From NCBI GenBank assembly GCA_015055815.1, contig SVHM01000003.1, positions 117,271 through 181,270 of the forward strand: 64,000 bases of DNA, in the 5' to 3' direction. Below the pieces are notes generated by a model. The model searched no databases and was not told where the DNA came from. It saw only the letters and a list, made by a program, of their open reading frames with translations. Within the stretch, counting starts at the first letter, position 1, and each line of letters opens with the position of its first letter. Positions 2,963 through 64,000 of the stretch are shown piece after piece. The translations under genes were made by a program, and so were the position numbers. Source of the stretch: Clostridiales bacterium (GTDB taxonomy: Bacteria; Bacillota; Clostridia; Christensenellales; UBA1242).

Positions 2963-2965
2963 ATC

Positions 2966-3763
2966 TTAACCCCCTTGAATAGTGGCGGACTTTCCCGCAC
3001 GTGAAAGTAATAATTTACCAAAGCCAATAATAACTATTATCCATGCAATAGAAATTCCGATAAATGGTAATGCGTCTAATGGGGATATGTTTCCGATATA
3101 TATTCTTGCAGGTAGGTCAATTATAAATCTAAAAGGTAGATAGTTAAGTATATTTTGTACCGCTTGTGGCATGAATACTAGGGGAATGTACATTCCACCA
3201 AGTATGCCAAATACTGTATTGCAAATTGAAGCAGTGCCTTTTGCCGATAATGTTTTGAAAGTTAAAAACACTATTATCATTGAAATTGAAGATGACATAA
3301 TTGCGCCAATTAGTATTGTGAATATAAATAATATAAATGCCGTAAAACTTGCTGGTAGCATAAGTCTAAGGCTAGGTGGTAGTATGAAAGCTACAATTAT
3401 AAGCGGAATGCATCTAAGTATCATGGCAGAAAGTTTGTAGCCAATATGTTCAGCAAACCATTGATTGTATAAGTTTATAGGTCTTACAAACTTGTAACAC
3501 ACATTCCCGCTTTCAATTTCTTTTGCACAGTTTTTGGGTAGGTCTAGAAATCTTATAACCAAGAAGCCTTGCCCTAGCCAAACATAACTTTTCATTTGTT
3601 CGAGTGAAAACCCTTCAATTATTTTTCCGCCCATAAATGCGGTGTAAAGGTAAATATACATAAGCCCCCAAAATACTTGAGTAGCAACGCCCGATATGGC
3701 TTTTGTTCGGTATTGTAATTCACCTTTAAAATTCATTTTAAATATTCCAAAGTATGAACTCAT
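2966..3763 (-). CDS. ABC-2 type exporter permease (COG4587-like)
   Basis: A 265-residue membrane protein with about six spans and the same architecture as its neighbour. The family hallmark is the region around residues 75-95, where DLPKNCAKEIESGNVCYKF leads into VRP (a cytoplasmic loop thought to contact the ATPase). It probably forms a heterodimeric channel with the 2183-2962 product, energised by the ATPase just upstream. The AGGTGGTGA ribosome binding site overlaps the stop codon of the ATPase gene, which indicates translational coupling. No substrate can be inferred. Confidence 0.8.
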   Translation of the reverse strand: MSSYFGIFKMNFKGELQYRTKAISGVATQVFWGLMYIYLYTAFMGGKIIEGFSLEQMKSYVWLGQGFLVIRFLDLPKNCAKEIESGNVCYKFVRPINLYNQWFAEHIGYKLSAMILRCIPLIIVAFILPPSLRLMLPASFTAFILFIFTILIGAIMSSSISMIIVFLTFKTLSAKGTASICNTVFGILGGMYIPLVFMPQAVQNILNYLPFRFIIDLPARIYIGNISPLDALPFIGISIAWIIVIIGFGKLLLSRAGKSATIQGG

Positions 3764-3773
3764 ATTTCACCAC

Positions 3774-22174: not shown

Positions 22175-22191
22175 AATTGGATGGATATTTT

Positions 22192-40659: not shown

Positions 40660-40689
40660 TTGACATGCGAGTGTATTTAATATTATTAT
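40660..40689 (+). promoter_or_regulatory. Probable promoter of the giant gene
   Basis: TTGACA (40660-40665), 18 bases, TATTAT (40684-40689). The leader is about 90 bases. Confidence 0.6.
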
Positions 40690-40784
40690 ATATATATAAC
40701 TAAGAATGGAAAATGCTGTCTAGATTTAAATTTCTGGGCAATTAAACTCCATGCCTAAAATATGGCAAAGTATGTGAGGGAAGA

Positions 40785-43700
40785 ATGAGAGACGAAAGAG
40801 CAAGTTTTGAAAGAAAAAATTTGATTATAAAAACATTAATTCTTGTTGTTATGTTTATGCTATCTTTGATGGCGTCAATTTTGTATATCATATCCTATCC
40901 GGTGACAACCATAAGGATATACAATGCAGAGACGCAAGAGTTTATTGATAAGATGACTGTCAGACGAAATTCGCCCCTTGATTATATTATCAACGTCGAA
41001 ACTCCATACGGCTATGATTTCAAATGCTATACATATGAAGACGGGTCAGAGTTTGTTCCGGGCAAAGTTGTAAATCAAGAAGTCATCAATATCTATGCTG
41101 TATATACCGCTAAGTATTTCAGAGTTACATATTATGTTCAAGATACTGATGGTGAATATAATACTCAAGTTGATGGCTGTGAAAGTTTCTTAATTCAGTA
41201 TGGCGATACATTTAATTTGCCTACGGGTAGAATAAATGGAACTCTACAAGGAATATTTGCAAATAATGCTGGTAGGTCGTTTATTGGTTGGACAATTGAC
41301 GAGCTTGCAACTGATGGTGGAGATGCTCAAGTTTATGCTCCAGGTAGCGAACAAATAGTTACAGGGGATTTAAACTATTATGCCGCATGGGAGAAAGATA
41401 CATACTCAGTAAACTTGTGGACTGGTAATGATTATGTTACAACTGATGGAACGCCTATTTTGGAAGGCGGTACGCCAAAGAGAGATGGTAGTGGTCAGTT
41501 TATAATTAAAAATGATAGACTTCATGTTGATAATACCCTTTCAACAATTAGATATTTAGATGACCTAGATTTGTTGATAGATAATTATTCTAGTGTATCA
41601 CTTTCGGAAGAATTGGATGGATTGGGTGCTGAAGAGTATGACTTCTTGGGTTGGTACTTGGAAGATAATTATGTAACAAAAATTTCCGAATACGATATTT
41701 ACATTGATGTTTCTAGTGACGGTGTTCCTTATATGGGTTACAAGGAAGACGGGCAGAAAAAAGAACTTAAGAGAGCAAGGGAAGTAGGCAAAGATGATGA
41801 TGGCAATGGTGTTTATCAATTTGACCTATATGCTAAGTGGCAAAGAAGAGCTTATAACATAACTTTTGATAAGAACTCGAATATCGCTAAAGGCAGAATT
41901 GACAAAATTCAAGTATACAAATATGACGAACTTTATGGTAAGTTCTACAACGAAGGTGTTGGTGGAGATTATGCTCAAGTATCGAATTTTACAAGGGATG
42001 GTCAAAAGCAAGGCAAATATTATAACTACATTAACTTAAGCGATGAAAACGAAATAACAACCAAAACATTTAAAGAAAGCTATACCACTAGCACTGGTAG
42101 AAAGTATAAATTTGTTGGTTGGACAACTAATAGTAATTCAAAAGTAGATGGTACAAAGTGGTACTGTAAATATCTTGTAAAGAATGGCGAAGAACAAACT
42201 AACGAATATAAGCACCTTGTTGGTAAAGATATTACTCTTTATGCACAATGGGAGCCAATTTGGGAAATTAGATACTATGAAAGCACTTCTTCATATTCTG
42301 ACTATAAGGTTAGAGAAGGGATTGAGGGTGAAACGGTAGCACTTTGTGGAAGTGCAGAAGTCGCTAGTTGGGGCTGGTCTTTGAAATATAATAAATTTGC
42401 TGGTTGGACTAGTTCAAAAACAAGTATTTCTCCAGACATTCTTAAATATGAAAATCAACCTAATTTTACACATAAATTTAAAAAGCAAGACCAAGTTCTT
42501 TATGTTGTTTGGGAGCCAATTAAATATGATGTAACTTACATGAAAAATGACGGAACAAACGATAACTATAATAGTTTTATGACGGGATACACTAAGTTCC
42601 CAGGTAGTGATACTGCAAAGAATAAATTCCCTTCATACGTTCCACAAAGAGAAGGTTATAAGTTTGAAGGTTGGTCGTCATATCAATATCAGACAAATGA
42701 ATATGCTCAAGAATTAAGGTCGGGAACTCCAACGGGTGAAAAAGCCGTTTATTCGCCTGGCTCTAGAAATTTAAAAATCACAGGTAATACAGTTGTTTAT
42801 GCTGTATGGTCTGTTAACTATGTTATTACTTATGATGCAAATGGTGGCGAAGGAACAGTAAATCCAGATGTAATGTACTCTTCAAGTAATAATAATAAGA
42901 AATTAAAAATGTCTGTAAAAGGCATTGGCGCTAAGAGTAAAGTGTCAAAATTTGGATATGTCTTTAAAGGCTGGAGACTAAAAGATAGTGCTGGAAATTT
43001 AAATACTGCATATGACTTTAGTTCAAGTTCTACTTACTCATTTGACTTTATTGCAAATGGAACATACGGAAGTGTTTCTCTTTCAAGCAACTCATCAAAA
43101 AAGGCAAATGTTTATTACGAGAAGTCTACCGTAGAAGGTGTTCCTGATAGGGTAATAAAACTTGTTGCTCAATGGGAGCCGATTTCTTATACTTTGACAT
43201 TTATCAATACTGCAGAAGGTCACATTGAAGAAAAAGTAAGAGTAGTTTATGGAAATGACTATACTTTTGATGTGAACTATACCTTTGATGCTGATGCTAG
43301 TAAGTTCCCAAATAAATTGCCGATGACATCTTCGGGTGGTAAATATTTTGATGGATGGTCTTTAGAGCGTGGTACAACGGCTAAATATGGCGTTGGTCTT
43401 ATAGATACACTTACATTTAGTGGAAGCGAACCATTTATTAAGAGTGATATGACATTCTATTCAATATTCACCGTAAAACCTATTGATGTATATTTCAAGG
43501 TGGAAAGGTATAATGCCGACCCTAATGCAGAAAAAGAAATTATCGACTTTGTTACTCCGACAGTTATGAACTATGGCACGCTTATAACATTCCCAAAAAC
43601 TGAGCCAAGCGAAGTAACACACTTTGGAAATGATTTGTACAAATTCACTCATTGGTACTATATTGATAGTAAGACTGGTGAAAAAGTAAAAGTTCAAAAG

Positions 43701-46700
43701 GGCGACTATTTATTTAATTATGTTGAAGATAAAGACAAAGACACAAGGTCGTTAGTCATTTGGGCGCACTTTGAACTTACTGTATATGATATTGAGTTTA
43801 TTTTTGCAACACCAGATGGCAAACAACAAGGCGAAACATATACATTCACAGTAAAAAAGGACGATTATTATACTGCAGATTTAGAAAAAGAAGTTAAGAA
43901 AAAATTTGAAGCAGTGATTGATGAAGATACTATTAAAAGTCACGTATTTGAAGATTTCTTTAACGAAGCTTATGTAAACGGTGGCGGTAGTGATTTTGCA
44001 AAAAGATTGGTAGTGGGACAACAATTTAATTCATTATATTTCCCAGTTCTTGCAAGCTCAAAAACTCTTACATTCAAAACTTACTGGACACCAAATTCTG
44101 TAAATATTAAGTATGTTTACGAAAATAACGGCGAAACTGATTATTATGTTGGTGGAAGCGTTTTATATGATAGCGTAGATACATTTACTTTAGAGACGTT
44201 TGATAGGGAGACAAACCATCCTTTTGAAGTAGAAGATGGTTATGATATCTATAAATGGTATATAGTTAAAGATAATTCTAAAGTTTACTTCAATCTTGGA
44301 GAAAGATTAATTGGTGGTGCATATCCATCAATGAGTTCTCTTGCTGACTATATTGTATGGCCAACATCTGGCACAGACAAGTCGGGAACTCTTTACGTTT
44401 ACGCAGAAGTAAATGAAAACATTACTATAAATTATTATGGTACTGATGGACTTATCGGTACAGACACAATTTTGCTTGATGCAAGTAGGCAGGCAAGCGT
44501 AACAATTAAAAACGGTAGTGAAGCAACAAAATCATACGGCAGAAACAACAATATTAGATTTGAAGGCTGGAAAGTTGGCGGACTATCAGAAACTACTACA
44601 TGGGGCTCGGGGGCTACTATATCTGTTTCTGCGACTGCATATCCATCTCACGTAATTAATTTATATGCAGATATGTCATTTGACATTAAATATCTTCATA
44701 TGAAAGATTACCAAAAGTCTTATAATGATGCTGAAGTTTTGAAAACAGAGAAAGTTTCACTTATTAACGAAAGCAAAACAGGTTATATAACTTTCTATAG
44801 TTCAAAAGGTTTGGATAACCTTGATAGTTATAAAGATGTTGACAAGGGCATTGGTGTATTTGGTTACAAATATGGCGAAGCAATATATTCTGTAAGTAAT
44901 GTTGCAAATGGTGGGCTTCCAATTGATATTGACGGAAAAACACAATTTGTATACTTATATGTTTATGAAACAATTAAAATTACATATACAGTAAATGTGA
45001 ATAATGGTGAAAGATTTAGCCATGAAACGGAAGAAAAAGATAATGAAAAAGCAACTTCTGAAATTGTTGAAGAGTATAAAGTAGGCTATGACTTATACTG
45101 CTTAGATGGAGATATAAGAGTAATTAGCGATATCCCAACTAAACCAGATTACGAACATAGTGGTTGGAAGAAAACTGTAAATGGTGTGGTAAATTCTACT
45201 GTTTATAAAAATAGTGAAATACTTAAACTAACATCTTTAGATGATATCACAATGCAGGCATACTTTATCGAGCCACCAATTGGCAAATATACTGGTTATT
45301 TGAGATTTAAAGCAGACGAAAATACATATCATGATATTACTGTTACAAATGGTCAAACAACTATAGAGGAGGTTAATGGTGTAAAGAAAAGTCTTTGCTT
45401 GCTTGATGAAGATGATTTAATTGAACTTGATGAGGAAAGACAAGGTGAAGGCAAATCATTAGCATGGACTAGCACAAAGAAGAAAATTATTGGCTGGAAA
45501 TGTGGTGAAATTGAATATATTTTAGGTGCAAATTATCCAGTTTCAAGAAATTTAAAAGATAATGACCATATCATCTTTGAAGCAATTTGGGAGAAAACTT
45601 ATATCCTTTCATACTATACCGATTTAATGGATATAAGTAAAATGCCAAACCCAAGCGAAATAACTGTTGTTTCGGGTGATGTGTGTGTAGTTCCAATAGT
45701 TGTTCCAGAAAGTTCAAAGCCAGACATAACATTTGAAACTTGGTATTATTTAAATAGGGGCGAAAAAATCATTATAAATGGCGGAGATAGTATAGTTGTT
45801 GATGAAAGTATATCTGAATACAAAGCAGAAAAAACATCTCCAACAAGTCCGACAATTCATTATTTGCCAGCAAGCAATAAAAATGGCGGAGAAAGCTATA
45901 TAATATACTCTCAATGGGGCAAACCATCATTTAGTGTTAAGGCAAGATATATCTATACTGGAGACATTACCCTTCCAGAAGGTAGTACTGGGGTAAAAGG
46001 TACAGAAACAATTGAAGAAGTAGAGTATAATTTTGTAGAATATACCTTTACTTATCCATATGGCTCAAGAATTGCCAACGATATAGTATCTCTTAGAAAA
46101 TTGGTTACTGAAGATGCAAAATCTTTATTTGAAACAAATGTAAAAGCAGTTCGTGGTTGGTCTACAACTCCAACGGGAGATACTTATTATCCAAGCGAAT
46201 TTGCATATATTACAGAAAATTTAGTAGTTTACGCAGTGTTCGCTAAAAAATATAGTGTCACTTATATTGATGCAAACTCTGATTTTGGTTATGATGAAGA
46301 TGTAAGAGTAACCCAATATTATTTCCCTGGCGAAATAGTAACTGTTGACTTAAATGTTGTTAGCAAAATTTATAAAAAATGTTCTACTGATGGCAAAAAA
46401 TATATCACAGCATACGATAAAGGTGGAATTTACGACACCTTTGAAAGTGGAACGGGCAATAATATTGAATATTATAAGGTGTTCGGGTTTATATTCAATG
46501 ACACCGACCCAGATTTTGAAGATTACACTGTTGACCCAGATGGCGATGGAATGATTTTGCTTAGCCTTATTGGTGGAAGCACAACATTTACTATTGGAGA
46601 AGGCGATATAACATTAACACCATATTTCTTAAGGGCATATACCGTTACTTTCTATGAAAACGGAACTGAAGAAGGCAAAATTCACTCTATTGATTACTTG

Positions 46701-49700
46701 TTCCCTGGACTTCAGTCATTAGACATTAGCTCTTTAGAACCGGAAAGACCAAATAATGTATTCTTGGGCTGGGGTGAAAGTCAAAACTCTTACGACCCAA
46801 TTCCTGAAAATCAACGTATTAGTGTAACTGACAAAAACTTAGAATTCTGGGCAATTTGGGAGTCTAATATTGTTGTTACATTTAAATTTGGCACTAGAAC
46901 AATTTGTTCTTTAGTTCCTAATGGACAAGGTAAAATTACCGAAACGGATATTTTAAATGGAATTAAGGGTGGTGTGACATCTGTAAATGAAAGAAAAGTT
47001 TATACATTTATGAATTATATGTATTACCTAACCGGCTTTATATATAATGATAACATGTGTGATATTACTTACATTTGTAGTCAAACTTACGCAAACTCAA
47101 CTACAATTTTTATTGACTTTACAAATGTGTATGAAGTTCAATATTACCAAAATGATGGCGTGCAACTTCCTTACAAAGATTATATTTTAAATGGTGGACA
47201 AAATGGTGTTTACATCAATGGAGATGGCACTTTGGGAAGCACATTTGTGGCATATAATCCAACTGGAATGGTCGCAGAAAAATACCATACTACAAATATG
47301 TGGGAATATAAAACTGGTCAAGTAGAATTTGGGCAAGCTGTTTTGGATATTGAAAACTTGATAGATTCTGCAGATAGTTTCCGTAAAATTAAATTTACTG
47401 CAAAAAATTCACCAAAGACATATAAGGTTGAAATTTATTATGTAGATGAAAGCAAAACTGTAATTGATTTCTATAAGAGTTTTGAAAGTGCAGAGACATT
47501 AACAAATGGCTTTACAAACTATACAAGCACATTCGCTTACGATAGCGATGGTAACAAATTAATTCAAACTGCTGTAACATCAGCAAACTTACAATTTGGT
47601 AGTAAATTTAATGTACTATCTCCAGTAAGAATACCTACATTTAGCGATAAAATCGGTAATCAATATAAATTTATCGGTTGGACAACAGTTAGTAATGCTA
47701 AATTGGGCGCAAGCGTATCATATTATTCTGTTACTACACTGAATGATACAATTATAACTATTGATGCTGATTTGGTTGGTGATAATGATACAATTGAAAC
47801 TATTAAATTGTATCCAGTATTTGAAGAAGTTTTAAAAGATATCAATATTTCTGCTTCAACTGGTGGAAAAATAGATTATCAAATAGAAAATACTGAAAGT
47901 ACTGGAATGATTGAATACCATGATGGTGTTGATAAAATTACAGGCATTAGTACTAAAGACTTGACTATTGCTTGGTATCAAAAATTAACTGTATTTGCAG
48001 GTACTGCTGATACAAATTATGAGTTTAAAAACTTTGCATTCAATGACGTTAGCAAGGATGATGACTTTGAAACTCTTTGGAGTGAACTTGATGATACAAA
48101 CTCTATTACTGCAAACTTTGAAGTAATGTCTGTTTCATTGAAGTTAAAAATAAATCCCGACCTTGCATTAAAGACGGGCATTGCAGATACAACTGAAATT
48201 ATAGCTACTATTAACGGAAGTACATATACTCTTAACTGGGAGAATATGGAACAAACTGTATCAGTAAAAATCACTGATGAAGTAAGAATTTCTGTTACTC
48301 TTGGTAGTTATTATGAAATGTGTACATTTGTATCTGGAAGTAATACTTTCAGTCAATCACAAATTACTGTCAAAGATTTAGAAAAAGTTTCAGAAAATTA
48401 TGAACTTAACTTCAACTTAATTGCTAGTACAGTAGAAATATATTTTGAACTAAATGATGGTGGGTTTGTTGGTAGTACACTAACTGTTGCAAATGAAATA
48501 TTTAGCGGAGTTTCTACTTCTTACGACTTATCACAAAAACTAGTTCTTCCACGTAATTCAAAAATTACTCTTCCAAGTGCAACAAAAACTGTTAATGGAT
48601 GCGTGCTTAATTTGGTTGAGTGGACTAGCTCGGTTGGAAGCGGATTTACAAGTGGGGCAGTTACTGGCGAAATCGATAGAATTGTTACATTCCGTGCAAA
48701 ATATGAAACTGCACAAAACTTGTATTACCAAGTAGACGGTGAGACAGTATATCTTCAGACATTTAAAGGCGGTAGTACAACGATTGGTAATGATAACTTA
48801 ACTACTGCTCTTAAAGATAAAGGCGTTCTTGCAAAATATAACATAAATAAATGGAAAGTTGTTGGCGACAGCACTGAATACGAAAATGGCGACCCACTTT
48901 CAACAACAAATACAGTATTCTATTTAGAAGCGGTTAAAGACCCAGCAGACATAACCATTAAATATACATGGACTGTTGGCGGAGATGCAAAAGAATATAC
49001 TCAAACACAAAAATACGGAAGTGTTACACTACTTACAGAAGAAGAGTTAAAATCTTTAAGTCAAGTGACAGATGTTGCAAACGAATACATCTATGGTTGG
49101 AAATGGACTGATGGTGGTAACGAAGTTATGTCACAAGCGGGTGTAGATTGTTCTGACAAATTCACTTCTTTTGATCAATCTTCAAACAATACTTTTGTTG
49201 TTACTGCAGTAAGATATAAAAAGTACACATATAATATTGGCTACTTTGAAAATGATGGTACTACTACTATAACTAAAGATAGTACTGCTTTAGTTGGTAC
49301 AAAAGTAATAAAAGCAATAGATGAAAATAGAAATGTAAATACTGACGATTTGGTATATTCAGTAGACCCATTACTTCCATCTTCTTTAAGTGACGTTAAT
49401 TCAAATGTATACAATGTTTATATTGGTGAAACAAATGCAGATAAGCAACCAGTACTTGATGATGATAAGCAAGTAACTGTTACTGCTGGTGGACTATTAA
49501 ATTTAAGCTATACAGAAGACACTTTCACATATAGTTATAGACTAGTTGTAATTCTTGCAACAGGAGTAAAAGACTTTAATGTTGTTGTTACAAATCCAGA
49601 GAGTGGAAATGTTATTGATGGCGGAAATTATACTCTTAAATTAGACGCTTCAGCAATTGTTGGTGCACAACTTCCAAACTTTGTTGTGCGTTCAAATGAT

Positions 49701-55700: not shown

Positions 55701-58700
55701 GACACAATTACATTTAATTTTGCAATTTTGACAAACGATTTGCAATCTCAAGGTACTGATACTAATTGGAAAAAGGTTATTCCATCATCTAATATTGTGG
55801 GGGAAACCAATATTGGAAACAAAAGATATTTGTTTGTTACTTGGAAAACAGTTATACCAAATGTAACAAGTGGATATTCTTATGCAAAAGACATGCAAAA
55901 AGTTGAAGGCAAATATAGATATAATATTACATCTATAATGTCACAAGCATTAAAAGACTTTAATGACGAGTTTAACACAATTCCAGAAGGTGAGCCATCA
56001 GAGTTATATAACATGATGCAATACTTTATGTTTAAAAATCTATGGAACTCAACTGTTGATAATGCTTACATTGAAACTGAACAAAGTCACTATGCAATAT
56101 TTAAAAATGACACAAATACAGATACAATATTTGGACCAGGCTTAAATCTATATACAATATTAGATAGAGCAGTTCTTGTCGAACTTGAACATAAAACTAT
56201 TGATTTCTTTACTGGTGATTATATAAAAGATGAAAACGGTGAAAATATTGATAGAGCAGATTTTAATTTGGATGCATTATTAATCAAAGGTGGTCAAGAT
56301 GACCAAACTGCCGTTTCGGGTTACACATATAGCGCAAATAATTTTGATTTTGTTAATCTAACTGGTGGATATAAATATATTGTTTATATTCTTGATAGTG
56401 ACAAAATTAAAATAAAAATGGCTTATGGTTATTTCCTAACAGTAGGTATAGACCCAGTAATCGAAAGTGATACTCATTTGGATTATAATGCTCATGGTGT
56501 TGATGTTGCTGGTGATGTCGGTAGGGCTTGTACATTTGCAAATAACACATTGGAAATTAAACGTGAAAATGATGCTTTAATTAACAATTTTGAGACAAAT
56601 GCTCCAAAAATTTATGCCATTATTCAAGTTGTAGCAGATACATTTAATATAAACTTCTATAATGCTCTTGATGAAAATAATGAATATCGAACAATTGGAA
56701 GTACTACACTTTCATATGATGAAGATATTGCAAATGCGGGTTATAAATATTATAACGTTACTCTTGCTGACTGGTACGCAGATGCCACTTTGGGTGGAGA
56801 TGAAAGCACAACATTACCATTATTTGCAGGATCGCATAGTGGTAATGGTTTCACTCATCCAAGCGAAGAGACTAATGCCAACAAAAATTATGGACATTTG
56901 AGATATATCTTTACTCATTGGTCAAATAAAGACAACGCATCAAGTACAGTAAGTATTAACAATACTTTAAAATCTAGTTGTAATTTATTGGCTGAATATA
57001 TTGAAGCAATAGGCTTTGATAAGAAAACATCAGCAAGCGATGAACTTCTAGAAATAAAATTCAAAATATTTGATGTTAATAATGGTATAGAAGTAGAACA
57101 AACTAGATTTTTATTTAAAAACGAGTATAGGGATATGTTCGATCATCCTTATTCAACTTCACTTATTATAAATGACGTTCAAATTGAATTTGCTAGAATA
57201 AATGATAAGTGTGAATGGAGTAATGGGGGCTATAATAACTGGCACTTAAGAGAAACAATAACCGGTGATATTGTAGATAATGTGACCGACCTAGACCCTA
57301 GTGGCGATGGTATTGTTTATGCATGTATTCCATATACAATTGAAAGAACTTCATTTAATTCGGATACATATAATGGTGAAAATCCATCATTTACTCTTAC
57401 ATTCTTTGCGTTTGGCGGATATTATCAAGTTTACAATGAAAGAACAATAGATAATGATGATAACGAACGTGAAGTTATACGCTTTACAAATGTTATTCCA
57501 GTTGGTATGAAAGCTGGCAATAAAGATGTGACTACTAGAGATTATTATTTATTTGTAGATGGTAATAATCTAGATGGCGTTGAGTATGTATCTATTACAA
57601 CAAGTGATAATATTTCAACCAAAGGCTTACAATTCTTTATGGATGATGCGTCATATCAAAGTTATTATACATTCGCATATTGGAAATTAGTTGTTGACGG
57701 TGTGCATGCTGAAAGTAAGTACATTAATGGATATAAAGGTAGCCAAACTGGTAATGGCTATGTTGTAGTAGACACAGCTGTGTCTTCAAATGTCGCAACA
57801 GATATTTTGTTCAGCGAACATTTCAACGTTCTTGTAAATATACTTGATGCTGATATGATAGGTAATCCAATACTTGAAGAACAACTAAATTGGTTTAGTG
57901 TAAATAATAGTGTAAATGATAATGACTCTATTTATCAAGGTGATACCGGACTTACTAATGCTAAAATTACAATTGAATTAGATACAAACTCCAAGAAAAC
58001 CTTGTATATTAAGAAAGATGATGGTAAGACTATAAAAACTATTAAAACAATTACTCTAATAGACGACTTTAATTTACCATCTGACGACTCGTTCTATTGG
58101 GATGTACAAAATTTACAAGATAACTCAATAGGACAAATTGATTTAAATAATAATGTATATTTAATAGAAGATGAAAATGGCCCTATAAAACTTACACTAT
58201 CTTATAACAAGTCTAGAAGTCATAAAGATGAAAATTCTGCAGAACTATATGATTATGGAAGTATTAGAGAAGAAGATGCAAGTTATATAACATATACTAA
58301 TACTGAAGCTTTAAATAATGTTGTTTCAGGAACTGCTAAGTATAGTTATACTGCAATTACTTCAAATGACTCTTCATCTACACTTAACATTGTAGACGGA
58401 GAAAGCACTTTCACATTTACTGCAAATGGACTAGACTCAATTGAGTGGGATAATGTAGAGAGAGTTGTATGGCAGTATAGTAATGACGGAAACACTTGGA
58501 ATGATTTGAGTTGTGCAGAGGCAACCATTCCAACTGCAGAGAGTGTTGTTTCTCTTCGTATAGGTATTTACTGGAAGATGTTTACCGTTACTGGAATAGC
58601 ATCACCAGAAAAATATAACGGAGATTTGAAAAACAATTTACAAAATGTTTCGACTTATTCATTGGCTGGAAAAGTAAATGTTATTCTTCCAAAAGGTAAA

Positions 58701-61700
58701 AACTCAGTAGAAACAACCTATTCTGGAAATACCGAGACAATTAAGTTTGTAAATAGTGTTCATTCAGATGAAAGTGTTTCTCTTAACATTACAGTTAAGG
58801 CTCTAAATAATAATTATTATGGTCAAGGCGTATTTGTTGATGCTAGTTCATTAATAGACATTTCATCTTTAAAAGATGGTATTTTAGGCGATATAAAAAT
58901 ATTTAACTGGGTAGAGTCGTCTGTAACTCATACTATAAAAGTAGATGATTTTACAAGCGATTATACTCATGGATATGGTGTTGTTAATTATAAAAACACT
59001 CTTCTAAAATCACAATTAAATAGTGAACTTAACGATTTAATAGAAGAAGACTCATTTGATGAAAAAGATATTACATATAGAAATAGTACTTATTACTATG
59101 GTGTAACTGTATTAGGTAAGAGTAATACCATTGAATATTCTCTAAGTGAGTCTAGTGTAGCAAAACATAAAGCTATTAAGATTGAAGGTGAAAATGACAA
59201 CTCTACAACCACATACACTGACAACTCGCACGATTTAAGTAATGAAGACATTTACGTACTATTTGATGCAGAGCCTACGAAACAAAACTTTGAAGTTAAA
59301 ATTAATGATGTAACAAAATACACTTATACTATTTATGGTGGGTATAATGTAGGAGCGATTAATCAAGGTAATTATACTCGAGTATCAATAACTACTTATT
59401 GGTATAATATTAATACTTCTCCTGCAAGTGATAAAGCGATGCATTTTGTAATAGTTTCTCATCTTCCAGAAGTTGATGCAGGAACTCTTCCAACATATTC
59501 ACCTACACTATATACTAGTGCATATGTTTACCCAGATTGGGGTTACAAGATAAATAGTATTTCGTATAAGCAAAGTGGTGGTGACAGTACCACTCTTGGC
59601 TCAAAAGAAGATGTTATTACTGGTGGTAACTCGGCTGAAATAACTGCAGAAGTAATCATCTCTAAAGTTAAAATTTATCCTTATTTGTGGAAGGGTTTCT
59701 CGAAAACTCAAGATTTATCTAAAACTAATGGTCATATTTGGGATGTATTGAGCGGAGATGTTGTAGAACTTAAAGAAGATAAAACTACAAAAGATCAATA
59801 CTTTGTCGTAAATGTTGAAGGAATTAATAATTTCACTCTTCAATCAGATATAAATACTTTGTCGGTACTTTTAAAAGTTTATGAAAGTGAAAATGATGAA
59901 AGTGATGATGGTGAAATTAGATATAAGATTAAAGAGTTAGATACATATAGGTTGAATAGTGTGAACTTGGGCGGTACTTCAGTAACATATAATAGAGAAG
60001 ATAACAATGCTAGCGAAAGTAATGCAATAACAATTGACAAAACTTCATTTGATTTAAATATGTATTTTTCAGAAAGATTGGCTGTAAATATTGCATTTAA
60101 GAATACCCTTTCGGGTGATTCTATGGCAGATATTATGACAACTACTAGTCCAACGGATATATTTAACAGTTGCGTCGAAGAAAATTCTTCATTATTAAAA
60201 TATAATACCCTTTCAAGTACGCTTTCAACTTATTGTAAATACATTAATGTAAGCATTCTGGTAGACAAAAACTACTCAACATTGAGTTTTAGTATCAATC
60301 AAGGTAATTCAGTTGTTAATTATTCATATAGAATAGACTTAAATAATCACTATTCATTCGGGGCAAATAGTTTAGGTGGTTGGAAAATTGCAACCAACGA
60401 AGGTAGATTGTCTCTTGAAAGTGAAGAAGTAGAAGTTGCATCTATGGGTGATGGAAGTATTAAATACAATAGATTTGGGTATACGACAGGAGAAAATTCA
60501 ACCCTTGGTGAATATGTTATTGGTTTGAATAATTACACTAGTGCGTATACTGGTCATCGAAGCACATTCGCTCCATATGAATATGTAACTTATTCATTCC
60601 TAATGACTAGAGACTTTACAATAATACTAGACATCGTAAGAAATCCTGTAACTATTCATTACGAGACGGGTATAGATTATTGGAGTACAAATTACAAAAC
60701 AAATTATGAATTAAATACAATTACTATGGGCATGCAAGGACTTGATGAAAAAGTTACTTTGCCAGGTGGCTCATTTACTTTTGATGTTGAAGGAAGTAAC
60801 GTTCTAGATAATTGGTACGGTAAACTATCATTCGCTAGTCCGTTGAAATTAACTGTAAACTCAGATATAACAAACGCATCTGGAATTAATCAAACTATTA
60901 GTAGTACAAATCGTTATGTTGCAATTGGTAATAGTGATACTATTTCGGGAAGTAAAGGTACGGCTGTAACAAGTAAATTATATAAAACAACTAGATGGTT
61001 CTTTGTTTGTATTCCAGCAAAAACCGACTCTGTAACTTATACATTCCCTGAGTCAGACAATTCTTCTGAATTTGAGTTTGAAAGAAATGGTGAAATAACA
61101 TTGCCAAGATTATCAACCAAGAATACATCATTTACTTTATATATGGGCATAGATAGTTCAACATATTACCAAGGATTAGCTAGTTCAAATGACGCTTGGG
61201 TTGACTCAACTAAGAGAGAGATAGGTTATGTTGATTATAGTAGGAGCTTCGTAATTTACACATGGAATATAAAATATTGGATTGTAGGACTTCCTGCAAA
61301 AGAAATAACACTAGATGGTAATAACGATAATGCATATAACTTATATGACGAATTTATCAATCATGGTGGAGCTGAAACAGATGCGCAAAAATATACCAAA
61401 GTTGAAATCACAGCGAATATGTTATATGGCTATACTGTTACAGTAGAAGATAGTGGTACATATACTCCTTCAGGTATTACGTGGTCTTCGTTTGATAGCG
61501 TCGTCCTAAAAGGAGACAATTACACATTCAAAAATCAAAGTACTAATCAAAATCTATATGATTATGCTGGAGATACTCATGATAAACTAGTAGTTACTAC
61601 TGTTGCGTGGAGTCAAACTAACCCGGTAGTCGAAACAACTCTACGACTTATAACGAAACAGGCTGATGTGGCGGGTATAACCAAAGCATTAACTGGATTT

Positions 61701-64000
61701 AGAATAACGAAGGGTACTACGACCGAAGATATCAAATTCTTTGAAATTGTTCCGTCTGCAAATGGAAAAGCTTATAACTTAAATTGTATTAATGTAGGTT
61801 ATACTTTTGATATAACAAATATTACTCAAGATATAACCATAACCCCGTTATGGGAAGACTTTGGGTATTCTGTCATCTATGGTGTAAACAAATCTTCGGA
61901 TGAGAAATATAAAAAACAATATATAACAAGTGGAGATGTGTATGTTGATACCGACACAGAAATTGTTCTAGAAATAGATAGCGTTCATTATAATAGTTTG
62001 AGAAGTATGCCGTATGTTGTTGGGTATTCTGTAGAATATAAATCAAGCACACATCCAGCACCATATTTTGGTCTTAGTGGTATGTATTCTGATGGCATAA
62101 AGGGTGAACTAAAATATAAAGAAGGAGAATTAATTGTGCCACCAGAAACTGGAAGAATTAATTGTGGTGTCGTCATTGCACATAATTATATTAATAAAAA
62201 CAGCTTTGGCTACTACTCCACTAGGGGTGGACAACATTTGATGGAATTAGAAAGTAATACGTGTGGGTCACATAGCGATTACCCGCATACATATAGAAAC
62301 AAATGTAAGTATTGTACACATACTGAAGACGGAAATTATAATCAGGTTACGGCGTATAAATATTACGATTCAACTAGACATTATTCATATAAATTCTGTG
62401 TTAATTGTTTAACTGCTAAAAGTGAATTAAGTAGCGGGGAGAGTCCTACTAATTATTTCGTGTTTGTTTTAGATTATGATACATATTATCAGTTGGGCAA
62501 TAAGAGTGGTTTACTTATGAGTATAAATAACGTGGTATATATAACTAATTCCGGAAGTAGTTACATTGGACCTTGTACTTTTGGGAATCATGCAATGACC
62601 GAATGGAATACTACAAAACCTCCTTCTTGTACAGCTTCTGGCGAACAAGAACAATCGTGTCCATTGTGTCAATATACCATCACTCAAACTGTTGGAGCAA
62701 AGGGTCACACTAAGGAAACTTTATCAGAAGTTGGTGCAACATGTATGTCAGAAGGAACTAAGACAGAACATTGTGTAGTTTGTGGACTTATGGAAACCAG
62801 CGTTTTAGAAAAGGCTCCGCATAAGTATTATTGGGGAACTGATGAATGCACAAGTGATGATTACTTGTGTCAAGTAATAGATGGTGTTCATTATCATGCA
62901 TATAAACAGGCTGAAGAGTATTTCATTACAACTAATAATGACGCATATGTAATGTTGGATACAGATACGGCTCCTAATACAGATATCCCTGGTCATTGGG
63001 CATATTATTATTTAGCATATGAGTGTCAACATTGTCATAATTTCTATCATGAAGATAAAATGGATTTTATAGGTGAGCGTGACGAAACTATAGGTTGTTA
63101 TAGTTCAGTTCAATATGAAGAGTCTCCGTTATCTTATTTGGGATCAAACTGGCCAGATCGCGTATTTATAGATGATAAACAAGAGCTTGGCTTTGGTAGG
63201 TATGCTTTAACAGGTCCTTATTATGTTTTATTTGAAAAATCTGACAATACAATTTTGGAATATAATTATGAACAGGGACTTATCATTGGTGAGCATGAAA
63301 AAGAGTCCGTTTCTGGAGGCTCGCTTGCTACATGTCAAGACCATAAGGGCGAACAATGTAAATATTGTAAATTGCTTACTGAAACTGCAAGTGGTCCGCA
63401 TAAATTAACTCTTTGGACAAGAAGTGTGTTTGCGTCTGCAAGTGGTAATACTTGTAATCACTATGTAGATAAAAATGGTAGTGTTGTAAGAGAGTATTAT
63501 GTTAATTGTGAAATATGTAATATGTGGTATTATATAGACGCACCTACCTATTTAGGCATAACATTATCTCAATTAAAAAAGTACGATACTATTTCTTATG
63601 AAGAAATTTTTCAAGCTAATAATTCTACATATATACCACCTACTGAATGGTATTATAAACCATATAGGTATTCTCATTTAGATTATTCTGTTAGCACTAC
63701 TAGTAATAATGTTCTATATTTGGAAGGTGTAAATGATCGTTATATTCTTAAAGAAGATAAGGACAATATATTTATAGAAAAAGGCAAAAGTGTAAGATGT
63801 CCTGCTTGTGGAATATTATTAACTTTTACATATGATGAATATGAGAATGTATGGGTTGTTAAACATTCATCAGGCAAACAGGATTCAAGATCTAAGTCAT
63901 TATGGCTTTATAATGTGATATATTTAAATTACGAAAATGTATTGCCAAATATGCTCAAGAAGGATAACGGTGGATATTTTGAATGGGAAGATGATGTCTA
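40785..64000 (+). CDS. Giant surface protein with Listeria-Bacteroides (InlB B-like) repeats, 3' end outside window
   Basis: One open frame of at least 7738 codons that does not stop before the window edge; I checked the frame by translation at the start, near 46, 50, 56 and 60 kb and over the last 2 kb. Residues about 16-41 are a hydrophobic signal or anchor segment after a short basic head (MRDERASFERKNLIIKT). From about residue 90 to beyond 6000 the protein consists of 60-100-residue beta repeats of the Flg_new/InlB B type, with recurring F.GW (FIGWTIDE, FVGWTTNS, FAGWTSSK, FEGWSSYQ) and closing LYA.WE or YAVWE strands. Residues about 7160-7680 hold eight CxxC pairs (C7174/C7177 to C7672/C7675), some in GHT..ATC..EG..T..C..CG units. 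GAGGGAAGA precedes the ATG. Function is probably adhesion or surface structure. The C-terminal anchor is not visible. Confidence 0.9.
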   Translation, partial: MRDERASFERKNLIIKTLILVVMFMLSLMASILYIISYPVTTIRIYNAETQEFIDKMTVRRNSPLDYIINVETPYGYDFKCYTYEDGSEFVPGKVVNQEVINIYAVYTAKYFRVTYYVQDTDGEYNTQVDGCESFLIQYGDTFNLPTGRINGTLQGIFANNAGRSFIGWTIDELATDGGDAQVYAPGSEQIVTGDLNYYAAWEKDTYSVNLWTGNDYVTTDGTPILEGGTPKRDGSGQFIIKNDRLHVDNTLSTIRYLDDLDLLIDNYSSVSLSEELDGLGAEEYDFLGWYLEDNYVTKISEYDIYIDVSSDGVPYMGYKEDGQKKELKRAREVGKDDDGNGVYQFDLYAKWQRRAYNITFDKNSNIAKGRIDKIQVYKYDELYGKFYNEGVGGDYAQVSNFTRDGQKQGKYYNYINLSDENEITTKTFKESYTTSTGRKYKFVGWTTNSNSKVDGTKWYCKYLVKNGEEQTNEYKHLVGKDITLYAQWEPIWEIRYYESTSSYSDYKVREGIEGETVALCGSAEVASWGWSLKYNKFAGWTSSKTSISPDILKYENQPNFTHKFKKQDQVLYVVWEPIKYDVTYMKNDGTNDNYNSFMTGYTKFPGSDTAKNKFPSYVPQREGYKFEGWSSYQYQTNEYAQELRSGTPTGEKAVYSPGSRNLKITGNTVVYAVWSVNYVITYDANGGEGTVNPDVMYSSSNNNKKLKMSVKGIGAKSKVSKFGYVFKGWRLKDSAGNLNTAYDFSSSSTYSFDFIANGTYGSVSLSSNSSKKANVYYEKSTVEGVPDRVIKLVAQWEPISYTLTFINTAEGHIEEKVRVVYGNDYTFDVNYTFDADASKFPNKLPMTSSGGKYFDGWSLERGTTAKYGVGLIDTLTFSGSEPFIKSDMTFYSIFTVKPIDVYFKVERYNADPNAEKEIIDFVTPTVMNYGTLITFPKTEPSEVTHFGNDLYKFTHWYYIDSKTGEKVKVQKGDYLFNYVEDKDKDTRSLVIWAHFELTVYDIEFIFATPDGKQQGETYTFTVKKDDYYTADLEKEVKKKFEAVIDEDTIKSHVFEDFFNEAYVNGGGSDFAKRLVVGQQFNSLYFPVLASSKTLTFKTYWTPNSVNIKYVYENNGETDYYVGGSVLYDSVDTFTLETFDRETNHPFEVEDGYDIYKWYIVKDNSKVYFNLGERLIGGAYPSMSSLADYIVWPTSGTDKSGTLYVYAEVNENITINYYGTDGLIGTDTILLDASRQASVTIKNGSEATKSYGRNNNIRFEGWKVGGLSETTTWGSGATISVSATAYPSHVINLYADMSFDIKYLHMKDYQKSYNDAEVLKTEKVSLINESKTGYITFYSSKGLDNLDSYKDVDKGIGVFGYKYGEAIYSVSNVANGGLPIDIDGKTQFVYLYVYETIKITYTVNVNNGERFSHETEEKDNEKATSEIVEEYKVGYDLYCLDGDIRVISDIPTKPDYEHSGWKKTVNGVVNSTVYKNSEILKLTSLDDITMQAYFIEPPIGKYTGYLRFKADENTYHDITVTNGQTTIEEVNGVKKSLCLLDEDDLIELDEERQGEGKSLAWTSTKKKIIGWKCGEIEYILGANYPVSRNLKDNDHIIFEAIWEKTYILSYYTDLMDISKMPNPSEITVVSGDVCVVPIVVPESSKPDITFETWYYLNRGEKIIINGGDSIVVDESISEYKAEKTSPTSPTIHYLPASNKNGGESYIIYSQWGKPSFSVKARYIYTGDITLPEGSTGVKGTETIEEVEYNFVEYTFTYPYGSRIANDIVSLRKLVTEDAKSLFETNVKAVRGWSTTPTGDTYYPSEFAYITENLVVYAVFAKKYSVTYIDANSDFGYDEDVRVTQYYFPGEIVTVDLNVVSKIYKKCSTDGKKYITAYDKGGIYDTFESGTGNNIEYYKVFGFIFNDTDPDFEDYTVDPDGDGMILLSLIGGSTTFTIGEGDITLTPYFLRAYTVTFYENGTEEGKIHSIDYLFPGLQSLDISSLEPERPNNVFLGWGESQNSYDPIPENQRISVTDKNLEFWAIWESNIVVTFKFGTRTICSLVPNGQGKITETDILNGIKGGVTSVNERKVYTFMNYMYYLTGFIYNDNMCDITYICSQTYANSTTIFIDFTNVYEVQYYQNDGVQLPYKDYILNGGQNGVYINGDGTLGSTFVAYNPTGMVAEKYHTTNMWEYKTGQVEFGQAVLDIENLIDSADSFRKIKFTAKNSPKTYKVEIYYVDESKTVIDFYKSFESAETLTNGFTNYTSTFAYDSDGNKLIQTAVTSANLQFGSKFNVLSPVRIPTFSDKIGNQYKFIGWTTVSNAKLGASVSYYSVTTLNDTIITIDADLVGDNDTIETIKLYPVFEEVLKDINISASTGGKIDYQIENTESTGMIEYHDGVDKITGISTKDLTIAWYQKLTVFAGTADTNYEFKNFAFNDVSKDDDFETLWSELDDTNSITANFEVMSVSLKLKINPDLALKTGIADTTEIIATINGSTYTLNWENMEQTVSVKITDEVRISVTLGSYYEMCTFVSGSNTFSQSQITVKDLEKVSENYELNFNLIASTVEIYFELNDGGFVGSTLTVANEIFSGVSTSYDLSQKLVLPRNSKITLPSATKTVNGCVLNLVEWTSSVGSGFTSGAVTGEIDRIVTFRAKYETAQNLYYQVDGETVYLQTFKGGSTTIGNDNLTTALKDKGVLAKYNINKWKVVGDSTEYENGDPLSTTNTVFYLEAVKDPADITIKYTWTVGGDAKEYTQTQKYGSVTLLTEEELKSLSQVTDVANEYIYGWKWTDGGNEVMSQAGVDCSDKFTSFDQSSNNTFVVTAVRYKKYTYNIGYFENDGTTTITKDSTALVGTKVIKAIDENRNVNTDDLVYSVDPLLPSSLSDVNSNVYNVYIGETNADKQPVLDDDKQVTVTAGGLLNLSYTEDTFTYSYRLVVILATGVKDFNVVVTNPESGNVIDGGNYTLKLDASAIVGAQLPNFVVRSNDSTIIDWKYNNATIKTTEIAGINFNSYRLTGYRLTSSSGHDEIIDIEDISSQDFLDVTASDYTLTTQWASRITVHYSNGEDIIHTAYTDDEVETLSNAKLNEYNGSNLTKTGYMLVGYILNDKTKITYSDLSDLINFEASYTPESNEITLYPAWSEIYTYNFDVESVIEDKFGASYVTNKISFGENNTTFEDNEHSVNLYLSGDPSTYTVDMSKMYFTYDGYGIKSTNNWSLLDKFKEDLDSDEMFTTFSLEGNEHAGTFYAVWEREELTVIFLNNAKNKSGTILNETRLEIKVHLGEYLPNDYMEIYDETTEEYKNFTFLNLSTNADGSGVISTPATYVVDQTLTLYINYTYTYIIKFAGYSDFCDQTIDEICLADGVDKVNISDWLSTYTFHPNAVGDKSIESWSTSNDPNGNPPDFFAVSTLTADEKNSASPNYEITLYPKLTSQTYDVTLEYKYNGEWKSIRNNAIAHGSKLYDGISSPFDINSGDHPWTLYNCLISGSQKATQVNIQIGQSVETVDLEDCVITSNCTLVLVYTDIEYSLTLYNMLGEYSGTTLIGGTLSGELDFKYGNTIVNDERTLKIDNLTNASNYVIYHPSQVGYEFDYWYIKVGEDYEKVDISSNIPATIGSVGPDFLQLYNFTGAVEIYVVYTIKSYTVTINVVTDGFEYNSNLGFKLTIGSTDHSEYKNNVSYQIKEGTTLSIEGLVKGSQASKYLVDSVAVSDADKFKDHKVLGNLTITVKYILSTDFAKKVYFLVQKDNFKGNVRRISGEYKIENAQAPYNYVTTIEKGTTITTLADVFIGELNNYTFNGWYVGNSSGRITDNTYVTSIKVDNDVYLIADFTGKEITINYYDSESEDKAFGEPVTYGTSFVLSSAVIEKSDKVSHSWTINGKTYNLGDTVNFADINRDNNDISKIDVNANFQYFYTVKFVCDESGFTVSTPSEYKLVDKPISVSSYYLYDNDSGSYTLTNEALEYGKTCVVPNLTTTSTSKGFTGKWKVANETYDVNGVYELVKTHAENYIITITPVIGNIIKFNISLGGAAQKFYANKNATTEVQATTIYVEDGFVAPTIRKDSGSSYYILAVGDKQYYFYPTVDGTTSGTPINMLEYKHLGWTANSQLGRELADISTIMTDDKSAFKYKVVNGKFENNESDDTYIIDLKDLMSDNTTFYAVWEKAKTVTFSRVDSASATGEILSKVDNYNVNVTATAITYSLFFNDTIGTPNLEFTGKAFEGWRKSGTSVEPIKGHISLTSFANVTYEPVTADGVTITINLNFDKWKAYYNAVTNTTLDVTPTLTNSKVTINEQGVNYTFTASIENSKSALINFTGVFSDFTEAQKVFRFIGIAKNANDSTATLTSDYTFEAGNSYTLYAIWDVIEVALEVKVGNETYSTEVPWGAKLTIDGAEENSTGHIYYVALERLTFTNSSGQTTNASTILDAYEEMKNAPVSSDKNKQVFLYWAYDKGVNRVFNNTAVTGGAEQYTISDPISPILNSETNEWEVTTVYPYVTNKYEIRFVNDNNPYGSSIYLIDSNVAVDAIHPIDFDETYKGIVTIKYSEIETIFGKNYIASVSHGSVNITEDIVFTTKDNKFTSDTNNIVDIEVTLAFTVNYVLPSGEDGISAITNADIGQELYSTPTLSNTNGQFNSWVYSPNTMNLTSGTILSLKNSEKYIEIVWVSNGVYNIKYTLENGELESELITSKDIYLNAQIVKVSTISTSVGSLVVKEGENSNTNNYYVYTLSENKKQLTLKIHYCLPEKDIPEIELLTDGYGVTSIEHNGSTNSAIVNSWASRQILTTDNEGNIVYVESSGTKTESGETSTLYTLDYKITNTVESGRLNITTTFKFKTYANASTFNIVTDIYKYNVNFKILISEKENLQYLSTAIGSNTSPWVDFDSTATILNTKQTSPIAVTSTSSLNFDYGYGEFEEDYVTLTIFDVPYGTTLSLRNSNSDSQLLGWKSKNNINIWNNYNVTLQPTITSDDTTTPTAINVDMDIDVNDTITFNFAILTNDLQSQGTDTNWKKVIPSSNIVGETNIGNKRYLFVTWKTVIPNVTSGYSYAKDMQKVEGKYRYNITSIMSQALKDFNDEFNTIPEGEPSELYNMMQYFMFKNLWNSTVDNAYIETEQSHYAIFKNDTNTDTIFGPGLNLYTILDRAVLVELEHKTIDFFTGDYIKDENGENIDRADFNLDALLIKGGQDDQTAVSGYTYSANNFDFVNLTGGYKYIVYILDSDKIKIKMAYGYFLTVGIDPVIESDTHLDYNAHGVDVAGDVGRACTFANNTLEIKRENDALINNFETNAPKIYAIIQVVADTFNINFYNALDENNEYRTIGSTTLSYDEDIANAGYKYYNVTLADWYADATLGGDESTTLPLFAGSHSGNGFTHPSEETNANKNYGHLRYIFTHWSNKDNASSTVSINNTLKSSCNLLAEYIEAIGFDKKTSASDELLEIKFKIFDVNNGIEVEQTRFLFKNEYRDMFDHPYSTSLIINDVQIEFARINDKCEWSNGGYNNWHLRETITGDIVDNVTDLDPSGDGIVYACIPYTIERTSFNSDTYNGENPSFTLTFFAFGGYYQVYNERTIDNDDNEREVIRFTNVIPVGMKAGNKDVTTRDYYLFVDGNNLDGVEYVSITTSDNISTKGLQFFMDDASYQSYYTFAYWKLVVDGVHAESKYINGYKGSQTGNGYVVVDTAVSSNVATDILFSEHFNVLVNILDADMIGNPILEEQLNWFSVNNSVNDNDSIYQGDTGLTNAKITIELDTNSKKTLYIKKDDGKTIKTIKTITLIDDFNLPSDDSFYWDVQNLQDNSIGQIDLNNNVYLIEDENGPIKLTLSYNKSRSHKDENSAELYDYGSIREEDASYITYTNTEALNNVVSGTAKYSYTAITSNDSSSTLNIVDGESTFTFTANGLDSIEWDNVERVVWQYSNDGNTWNDLSCAEATIPTAESVVSLRIGIYWKMFTVTGIASPEKYNGDLKNNLQNVSTYSLAGKVNVILPKGKNSVETTYSGNTETIKFVNSVHSDESVSLNITVKALNNNYYGQGVFVDASSLIDISSLKDGILGDIKIFNWVESSVTHTIKVDDFTSDYTHGYGVVNYKNTLLKSQLNSELNDLIEEDSFDEKDITYRNSTYYYGVTVLGKSNTIEYSLSESSVAKHKAIKIEGENDNSTTTYTDNSHDLSNEDIYVLFDAEPTKQNFEVKINDVTKYTYTIYGGYNVGAINQGNYTRVSITTYWYNINTSPASDKAMHFVIVSHLPEVDAGTLPTYSPTLYTSAYVYPDWGYKINSISYKQSGGDSTTLGSKEDVITGGNSAEITAEVIISKVKIYPYLWKGFSKTQDLSKTNGHIWDVLSGDVVELKEDKTTKDQYFVVNVEGINNFTLQSDINTLSVLLKVYESENDESDDGEIRYKIKELDTYRLNSVNLGGTSVTYNREDNNASESNAITIDKTSFDLNMYFSERLAVNIAFKNTLSGDSMADIMTTTSPTDIFNSCVEENSSLLKYNTLSSTLSTYCKYINVSILVDKNYSTLSFSINQGNSVVNYSYRIDLNNHYSFGANSLGGWKIATNEGRLSLESEEVEVASMGDGSIKYNRFGYTTGENSTLGEYVIGLNNYTSAYTGHRSTFAPYEYVTYSFLMTRDFTIILDIVRNPVTIHYETGIDYWSTNYKTNYELNTITMGMQGLDEKVTLPGGSFTFDVEGSNVLDNWYGKLSFASPLKLTVNSDITNASGINQTISSTNRYVAIGNSDTISGSKGTAVTSKLYKTTRWFFVCIPAKTDSVTYTFPESDNSSEFEFERNGEITLPRLSTKNTSFTLYMGIDSSTYYQGLASSNDAWVDSTKREIGYVDYSRSFVIYTWNIKYWIVGLPAKEITLDGNNDNAYNLYDEFINHGGAETDAQKYTKVEITANMLYGYTVTVEDSGTYTPSGITWSSFDSVVLKGDNYTFKNQSTNQNLYDYAGDTHDKLVVTTVAWSQTNPVVETTLRLITKQADVAGITKALTGFRITKGTTTEDIKFFEIVPSANGKAYNLNCINVGYTFDITNITQDITITPLWEDFGYSVIYGVNKSSDEKYKKQYITSGDVYVDTDTEIVLEIDSVHYNSLRSMPYVVGYSVEYKSSTHPAPYFGLSGMYSDGIKGELKYKEGELIVPPETGRINCGVVIAHNYINKNSFGYYSTRGGQHLMELESNTCGSHSDYPHTYRNKCKYCTHTEDGNYNQVTAYKYYDSTRHYSYKFCVNCLTAKSELSSGESPTNYFVFVLDYDTYYQLGNKSGLLMSINNVVYITNSGSSYIGPCTFGNHAMTEWNTTKPPSCTASGEQEQSCPLCQYTITQTVGAKGHTKETLSEVGATCMSEGTKTEHCVVCGLMETSVLEKAPHKYYWGTDECTSDDYLCQVIDGVHYHAYKQAEEYFITTNNDAYVMLDTDTAPNTDIPGHWAYYYLAYECQHCHNFYHEDKMDFIGERDETIGCYSSVQYEESPLSYLGSNWPDRVFIDDKQELGFGRYALTGPYYVLFEKSDNTILEYNYEQGLIIGEHEKESVSGGSLATCQDHKGEQCKYCKLLTETASGPHKLTLWTRSVFASASGNTCNHYVDKNGSVVREYYVNCEICNMWYYIDAPTYLGITLSQLKKYDTISYEEIFQANNSTYIPPTEWYYKPYRYSHLDYSVSTTSNNVLYLEGVNDRYILKEDKDNIFIEKGKSVRCPACGILLTFTYDEYENVWVVKHSSGKQDSRSKSLWLYNVIYLNYENVLPNMLKKDNGGYFEWEDDV

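What the first reader, a model, noticed from the sequence alone, without database searches (positions are those of the whole stretch)
40785..64000. A single reading frame of more than 7738 codons running off the window
The frame starting at 40785 is open for 23.2 kb with no stop, encoding over 0.8 MDa of InlB-B-like repeats behind one N-terminal membrane segment. Proteins of this size are rare in bacteria. The repeats are diverged from one another at the DNA level (no long identical tracts were seen), so the gene looks old and selected rather than freshly expanded.
Basis: partly seen in the sequence, partly recalled or inferred. Interest (0 to 1): 0.8.

Follow-up and report, generated by a model that had tools for sequence, protein, structure and literature searches.

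The report
Giant membrane-anchored surface protein, genus-conserved
A gut bacterium with only 1.3 million bases of DNA devotes 23.5 kb to one gene for a 7,816-amino-acid protein that is probably a very long thread anchored in its membrane; five related species keep a similar gene at the same place (four complete, at 8,020-8,289 residues) although three quarters of the amino acids have changed.

Summary
The reading frame is real. It starts at 40785 and ends 235 bases beyond the window (TAA, G000:C4:181503-181505): 7,816 aa, 879 kDa, native codon usage, no exact repeat of 16 nt or more, its own promoter-like site, and a terminator-like hairpin at the stop. It is not an assembly accident: five other MAG species of the genus hold a frame of 8,020-8,289 aa (one cut at a contig end at 5,178) at the same place, downstream of CNNM-typA. 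TypA is 86-90% identical but the giant only ~25%, and 55 of 55 significant 300-aa window matches are collinear. So it is an old, fast-evolving ortholog with near-constant length. All six have one N-terminal membrane segment; no C-terminal anchor; no sortase in the genus. InlB-B-like units are detectable only in residues ~74-4343 (about 23 units), not along the whole 0.8 MDa; the last ~40% is unassigned, and a Cys/His region (4-8 CxxC) sits near the C terminus. Most likely it is a fibrillar, adhesin-like surface thread with an inverted N-terminal anchor. Function is inferred. Giant frames (5,000-18,679 aa) recur across the family. Structure predictions failed (pLDDT 33 and 29).

The parts
40785..64000 (+). 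Giant ORF, 7,816 aa in full; the stop TAA lies outside the window at virtual position 64233-64235 (G000:C4:181503-181505)
40660..40689 (+). Promoter-like site TTGACA-18-TATTAT, 95 nt before the ATG; each of the six orthologs has a best site of 11 or 12 of 12 matches, with its -10 hexamer 78-170 nt before the start
40776..40784 (+). Shine-Dalgarno-like GAGGGAAGA just before the ATG
   Evidence: sequence
40785..40823 (+). Short N-terminal tail, conserved (E/R)xSxERK motif, inferred cytoplasmic
   Evidence: alignment A1, (S7, E9, R10 invariant)
40824..40895 (+). Single membrane segment (about residues 14-37), the only strong one in the protein and present in all six orthologs; inferred uncleaved N-in/C-out signal anchor
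41004..53813 (+). Region (residues 74-4343) with about 23 detectable InlB-B/PF09479-like units, densest in the first 1,000 residues
53814..62162 (+). Residues 4344-7126: collinear with orthologs but no assignable domain family; weak residual InlB-like profile signal only
62163..63824 (+). Cys/His-rich region (residues ~7127-7680), 8 CxxC motifs; 4-7 CxxC in the four other complete orthologs, all or nearly all near the C terminus; inferred metal-binding, inferred distal tip
36844..38271 (+). CNNM/CBS transporter-like gene, syntenic marker upstream in all six species
38435..40261 (+). typA/bipA GTPase gene, immediate upstream neighbour in all six species, 86-90% identical

Best explanation
The gene is one genuine transcription unit for an 879-kDa cell-surface protein. 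The N terminus stays in the membrane as an uncleaved signal anchor (short tail inside, everything else outside). The chain that leaves the cell is a long string of small beta-rich domains, InlB-B-like in its first half at least, which carries a Cys/His-rich, probably metal-binding region at its far end. It works like a fibrillar adhesin or tether turned round: anchored by its N terminus and presenting its C terminus. If most of the chain folds into ~70-residue domains of 3-4 nm it could reach 0.3-0.4 micrometre and bind feed particles, mucus or neighbouring cells in the gut. Shown: the ORF and its ends, synteny, collinear orthology, near-constant length, the lone N-terminal membrane segment, absence of sortase, InlB-like units in residues ~74-4343, and the conserved C-terminal Cys region. 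Inferred: surface location, topology, fold of the second half, metal binding, filament shape, adhesion and its target.
For: Open frame and stop. Orthologs of 8,020-8,289 aa in four more species and 5,178 aa up to a contig end in a fifth, all just downstream of CNNM-typA, from separately named MAG records. 55 of 55 window matches at E<=1e-3 are collinear, none to reversed sequences. Length varies by a standard deviation of 2.2% while identity is ~25%. One N-terminal membrane segment in all six, CxxC motifs near the C terminus in all five complete ones. No sortase in 13 genus genomes although the control search works. Promoter-like site in all six; terminator-like hairpin at the stop. InlB-B/PF09479 units. 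Codon usage like that of its neighbours, r = 0.97. Flg_new (PF09479) is treated as a stalk domain, and fibrillar adhesins are described as long, fast-evolving proteins with stalk, anchor and adhesive region (PMC9210967).
Against: No known adhesive domain found; no Pfam hit in the last two thirds. Both AlphaFold2 models failed (mean pLDDT 32.7 and 29.3), so the fold of residues 4900-5700 and 6880-7520 is unknown. The InlB-like signal fades after ~4,350. No expression or proteomic data. Uncleaved anchoring is inferred, not shown. The promoter and terminator are pattern matches only.
Confidence: 0.6

Rival explanations
1. It is a structural or shielding coat (S-layer-like or glycocalyx-like thread) that spaces the cell from phage, protozoa or enzymes, with no specific ligand.
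For: No adhesive domain known in it; sequence almost free to change while length and order are kept, as expected of a spacer; the genome has PBP transpeptidases, hence probably a wall to reach across.
Against: The C-terminal Cys/His region is conserved at a specific place in all five complete orthologs, which suggests a functional tip rather than a plain spacer.
Confidence: 0.22
2. It is a delivery stalk for a C-terminal effector or enzyme, in the manner of polymorphic toxins, the Cys/His region being the active head.
For: Long filament with a distinct C-terminal region; the terminal ~150 residues differ among species in the alignment.
Against: No toxin, peptidase or immunity-like family detected in the C-terminal region; the gene looks monocistronic with a terminator-like hairpin at the stop, and its downstream neighbours gave no match to the orthologs' downstream genes.
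Confidence: 0.06
3. Assembly chimera, decaying pseudogene or non-coding open frame.
For: The genome is a fragmented assembly; no transcript or long-read data seen here.
Against: Open through 23.5 kb with coding-type GC by codon position, native codon usage, no repeats that could collapse, and collinear frames of similar length in other MAG species at the same locus.
Confidence: 0.03

Closest known systems
Fibrillar adhesins / FA-like proteins (as defined in PMC9210967)
   Same: Very long, fast evolving, repetitive stalk with Flg_new (PF09479) domains, presumed surface anchor
   Different: Far longer (7,816 aa against a training-set mean of 1,196); anchored by an N-terminal membrane segment instead of a C-terminal anchor; units not near-identical; no recognised adhesive domain
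Apilactobacillus kunkeei Giant1-5 (PMC12863079)
   Same: 3,000-8,000 aa extracellular proteins in a small (1.5 Mb) genome of a host-associated Gram-positive, imperfect internal repeats
   Different: Those have a signal peptide and C-terminal DUF5776 domains, and a cluster of five genes; this is a single gene with an N-terminal anchor, InlB-B-like units and a Cys/His C-terminal region; no shared Pfam domain found
InlB B-repeat / Listeria-Bacteroides repeat (PF09479, TIGR02543)
   Same: Units in residues ~74-4343 match; orthologs' first 1,000 aa pass the Pfam cut-off
   Different: In InlB-type proteins the repeat is a short accessory region (own knowledge); here it makes up about half of a giant chain and is heavily diverged
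Other giant InlB-repeat frames of the same family (e.g. G050, G147, G063)
   Same: Same kind of giant extracellular repeat protein in ~1-Mb genomes; G050 and G091 also have an N-terminal membrane segment
   Different: Different loci and N-terminal domains (leucine-rich-like in G050/G091 by eye); some carry a C-terminal membrane segment (G147, G137) instead

Membership tests
Fibrillar adhesin (PMC9210967) | Large length, among the longest proteins of the proteome | tested here: met
   7,816 aa
Fibrillar adhesin (PMC9210967) | Repetitive stalk domains | tested here: met
   About 23 PF09479/InlB-B-like units with an independent profile, 99% shuffle threshold; only the first ~55% of the chain
Fibrillar adhesin (PMC9210967) | Cell-surface anchor | tested here: inconclusive
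   Membrane segment at the N terminus in 6 of 6; no LPXTG and no sortase; actual anchoring not shown
Fibrillar adhesin (PMC9210967) | Adhesive domain | tested here: inconclusive
   No known adhesive domain in Pfam or NCBIfam scans; conserved Cys/His C-terminal region of unknown function
PF09479 Flg_new / TIGR02543 List_Bact_rpt | Score above the curated cut-off | tested here: met
   TIGR02543 32.1 bits (cut-off 20.95) in residues 1-1333; PF09479 over the cut-off in all five orthologs and one genome-search hit in this gene at 28.1 bits; whole-chunk Pfam score 26.3, just below 27
Sortase-anchored (LPXTG) surface protein | C-terminal LPXTG + membrane segment + sortase in the genome | tested here: not met
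   No LPXTG, no C-terminal membrane segment, no sortase in 13 genomes
Periscope protein (near-identical tandem stalk repeats, variable number) | Highly identical repeats with number variation | tested here: not met
   No exact DNA repeat of 16 nt or more; only 5 self-matches at E<0.01, 25-46% identical; length differs by 2.2% SD across species
A. kunkeei-type giants | C-terminal DUF5776 | tested here: not met
   No Pfam family in the C-terminal third of this protein at E<=0.1 nor in any of five C-terminal regions at E<=1

The most novel reading that the evidence does not exclude
Length itself is the selected trait: an N-terminally anchored molecular ruler or tether of about 8,000 residues whose domain order and reach are held nearly constant while three quarters of its residues are free to drift, tipped by a metal-binding C-terminal head, and one of several giant threads that this family of ~1-Mb Clostridia evolved despite genome reduction.
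Probability: 0.3. Interest if true: 0.7.

Novelty: new member of a known kind. Interest (0 to 1): 0.5.

Why it matters
Genome-reduced bacteria are expected to shed costly genes, yet this one keeps 1.8% of its DNA in a single protein and a relative appears to keep 5.6% (an 18,679-aa frame in ~1.0 Mb). The near-constant length with ~25% identity at a fixed locus gives a test case for whether selection acts on the reach of surface threads rather than on their sequence, and the family is a fresh set of giant surface proteins for uncultured gut Clostridia.

Tried and rejected
A genome-contig scan with the single protein found no relative; the second, with the neighbouring CNNM alignment, gave the organism names. 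AlphaFold2 on residues 4900-5700 and 6880-7520 failed (mean pLDDT 33 and 29), so no fold search was run. PDB sequence search with the N-terminal profile: nothing; with the C-terminal profile: only chance-level hits. Profile comparison of residues 4900-5700 and 6880-7520 with the N-terminal repeats: not significant. No Rfam element above its gathering score in the 5' region. The first repeat map used a profile that included units from the giant itself; it was repeated with independent seeds and only that one is used for the count. Rejected: assembly artefact, pseudogene, periscope protein, sortase-anchored protein, A. kunkeei-type giant. The family-wide idea that the giant always sits beside typA was rejected: outside the genus the giants I could place are mostly elsewhere.

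Full report
Observation. The frame that starts at 40785 is open to the end of the window. The window is G000:C4:117271-181270 of a 1.31-Mb, 15-contig, 98.3% complete genome. The contig continues, and the stop codon TAA lies 235 bases outside the window (L002:1504-1506). The full gene is 23,451 bp and encodes 7,816 aa, 879 kDa, pI 4.6. The other five frames carry 415 to 1,139 stops, GC by codon position is 0.40/0.36/0.20, and no exact repeat of 16 nt or more exists. Codon usage correlates with that of typA, CNNM and FTHFS nearby at 0.97.

It is conserved. A search of the genus found the first 1,000 residues in five further species at E between 2e-47 and 4e-120 (a sixth had only a weak repeat-type match). 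Their frames are 8,216, 8,020, 8,272 and 8,289 aa from the chosen start, and one is cut by a contig end at 5,178. In all six the gene stands directly downstream of a CNNM gene and typA. TypA is 86-90% identical to ours in these species, against 74-76% in two genus members in which the N-terminal profile found no match. A shared assembly error is therefore not credible.

It evolves fast but keeps order and length. Aligned over the whole length the orthologs are about 25% identical, 35% near the N terminus. When 26 windows of 300 aa were searched against the five orthologs, all 55 matches at E<=1e-3 lay at the collinear position, and none fell on reversed sequences; 18 windows had such a match. 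Weakly matching windows lie mostly between 4,500 and 7,000. The five complete lengths have a standard deviation of 2.2%. Only five self-matches (25-46% identical) were seen within the protein at E<0.01. The array is old; it has not been expanded recently. That the coding frame survived this much divergence implies purifying selection on it; dN/dS could not be computed at this distance.

Anatomy. (i) A short tail with invariant S7, E9 and R10. (ii) One hydrophobic segment, about residues 14-37, the only strong one in the protein, present in all six; I infer an uncleaved signal anchor. (iii) InlB-B-like units. Plain Pfam on this copy gives PF09479 at 26.3 bits in the first 2,500 aa (cut-off 27) and nothing afterwards, while NCBIfam TIGR02543 passes (32.1 bits) and PF09479 passes in all five orthologs' first 1,000 aa. 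An iterated HMM finds 8-11 units, none in shuffled sequences. A profile-profile scan with seeds taken only from other proteins of the genome finds about 23 units between residues 74 and 4343 above the 99% shuffle threshold, with weak residual signal beyond (the earlier scan used a profile containing the giant's own units and is not used for the count). Residues 1700-2300 match the N-terminal profile (probability 97%); residues 4900-5700 and 6880-7520 do not. (iv) A Cys/His-rich region, residues ~7127-7680, with 8 CxxC motifs; the four other complete orthologs have 4-7, all or nearly all near the C terminus. No Pfam family matches it. (v) No LPXTG and no C-terminal membrane segment, and no sortase in 13 genus genomes although the control genomes ring. 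PBP transpeptidases are present, so a wall is likely.

Expression signals. In each of the six species the best promoter-like site before the gene scores 11 or 12 of 12 against TTGACA-17/18-TATAAT, with the -10 hexamer 78-170 nt before the start. Ours is TTGACA-18-TATTAT at 40660-40689, followed by GAGGGAAGA before the ATG. A terminator-like hairpin (18 pairs, T-rich tail) begins at the stop codon. No Rfam leader reached its gathering score. These are sequence patterns, not proof of transcription.

The wider family. A profile search of 147 genomes of the family (42 genera, mostly 0.7-1.5 Mb) found relatives of the N-terminal repeats in 94, and PF09479 in 135. At least 28 of them, in at least 13 genera, hold a matching frame of 5,000 aa or more (my count over the printed rows, which were cut, so a lower bound). 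The longest seen is G050:C2:48451-104505, 18,679 aa or about 2.06 MDa in a genome of about 1.0 Mb, with an N-terminal membrane segment and none elsewhere. Others (G147, G137) end in a membrane segment with a basic tail, so several architectures exist. Outside the genus the giants I could place are mostly not beside typA. In G001 a different giant frame of at least 3,998 aa lies a few genes from typA.

Mechanism. The best-supported reading is a fibrillar, adhesin-like surface thread, anchored by its N terminus and presenting its C terminus. Flg_new is listed as a stalk domain and fibrillar adhesins are described as long, fast-evolving proteins with a stalk, an anchor and an adhesive region (PMC9210967). 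Here the orientation is inverted compared with the C-terminally anchored Firmicutes adhesins in that paper. If most of the chain folds into ~70-residue domains of 3-4 nm (my assumption), the thread would reach 0.3-0.4 micrometre. The closest published analogue is the set of 3,000-8,000 aa Giant proteins of A. kunkeei in a 1.5-Mb genome (PMC12863079), which differ in anchor and domains. Adhesion, metal binding and filament shape are inferences. A plain spacer or shield is the main rival. Two AlphaFold2 runs gave models of no value (mean pLDDT 32.7 and 29.3), so the fold of the second half is unknown.

Verdict. Observation confirmed; interpretation partly supported; a new member of the known kind 'giant repeat-rich bacterial surface protein', made more interesting by its genus-wide positional conservation, near-constant length and the family's other giants.

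Noticed in passing
G050:C2:48451-104505 (loci L173, L169-L171): Single frame of 18,679 aa (about 2.06 MDa) in a ~1.0-Mb genome of the same family, one N-terminal membrane segment, 61 FxGW-type motifs, no C-terminal membrane segment.
   Followed up: partly
family sample: At least 28 of 147 genomes in at least 13 of 42 genera hold a repeat-matching frame of 5,000 aa or more (lower bound, printed lists were cut): giant surface genes are common in this reduced-genome family.
   Followed up: partly
G147:C1:27255-65399 and G137:C2:43525-69954: Giants of 12,714 and at least 8,809 aa that end in a membrane segment with a lysine-rich tail, the opposite anchoring to the window's gene.
   Followed up: no
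G004:C8:194055-201710: Two same-frame pieces of 915 and 1,636 codons with InlB-like repeats separated by one in-frame stop, behind a lipoprotein-like N terminus.
   Followed up: no
L002:4395-7571: 23S and 5S rRNA genes about 3 kb downstream of the giant with no 16S match in the scanned 7.6 kb; the 16S may be unlinked.
   Followed up: no
L002:9356-11400: Two adjacent similar ORFs of 342 and 331 aa that resemble HipA-type kinases by eye.
   Followed up: no
L002:1549-3465: Two neighbouring reverse-strand ORFs share a near-identical N-terminal region (VEEFLIEKKENLQELMANISSKTNEVASK...) and diverge after it, just downstream of the giant.
   Followed up: no
22177-25668: 1,163-aa protein with no Pfam family; the counterpart in G011 is only 32% identical over 434 aa, another fast-evolving large protein.
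   Followed up: no
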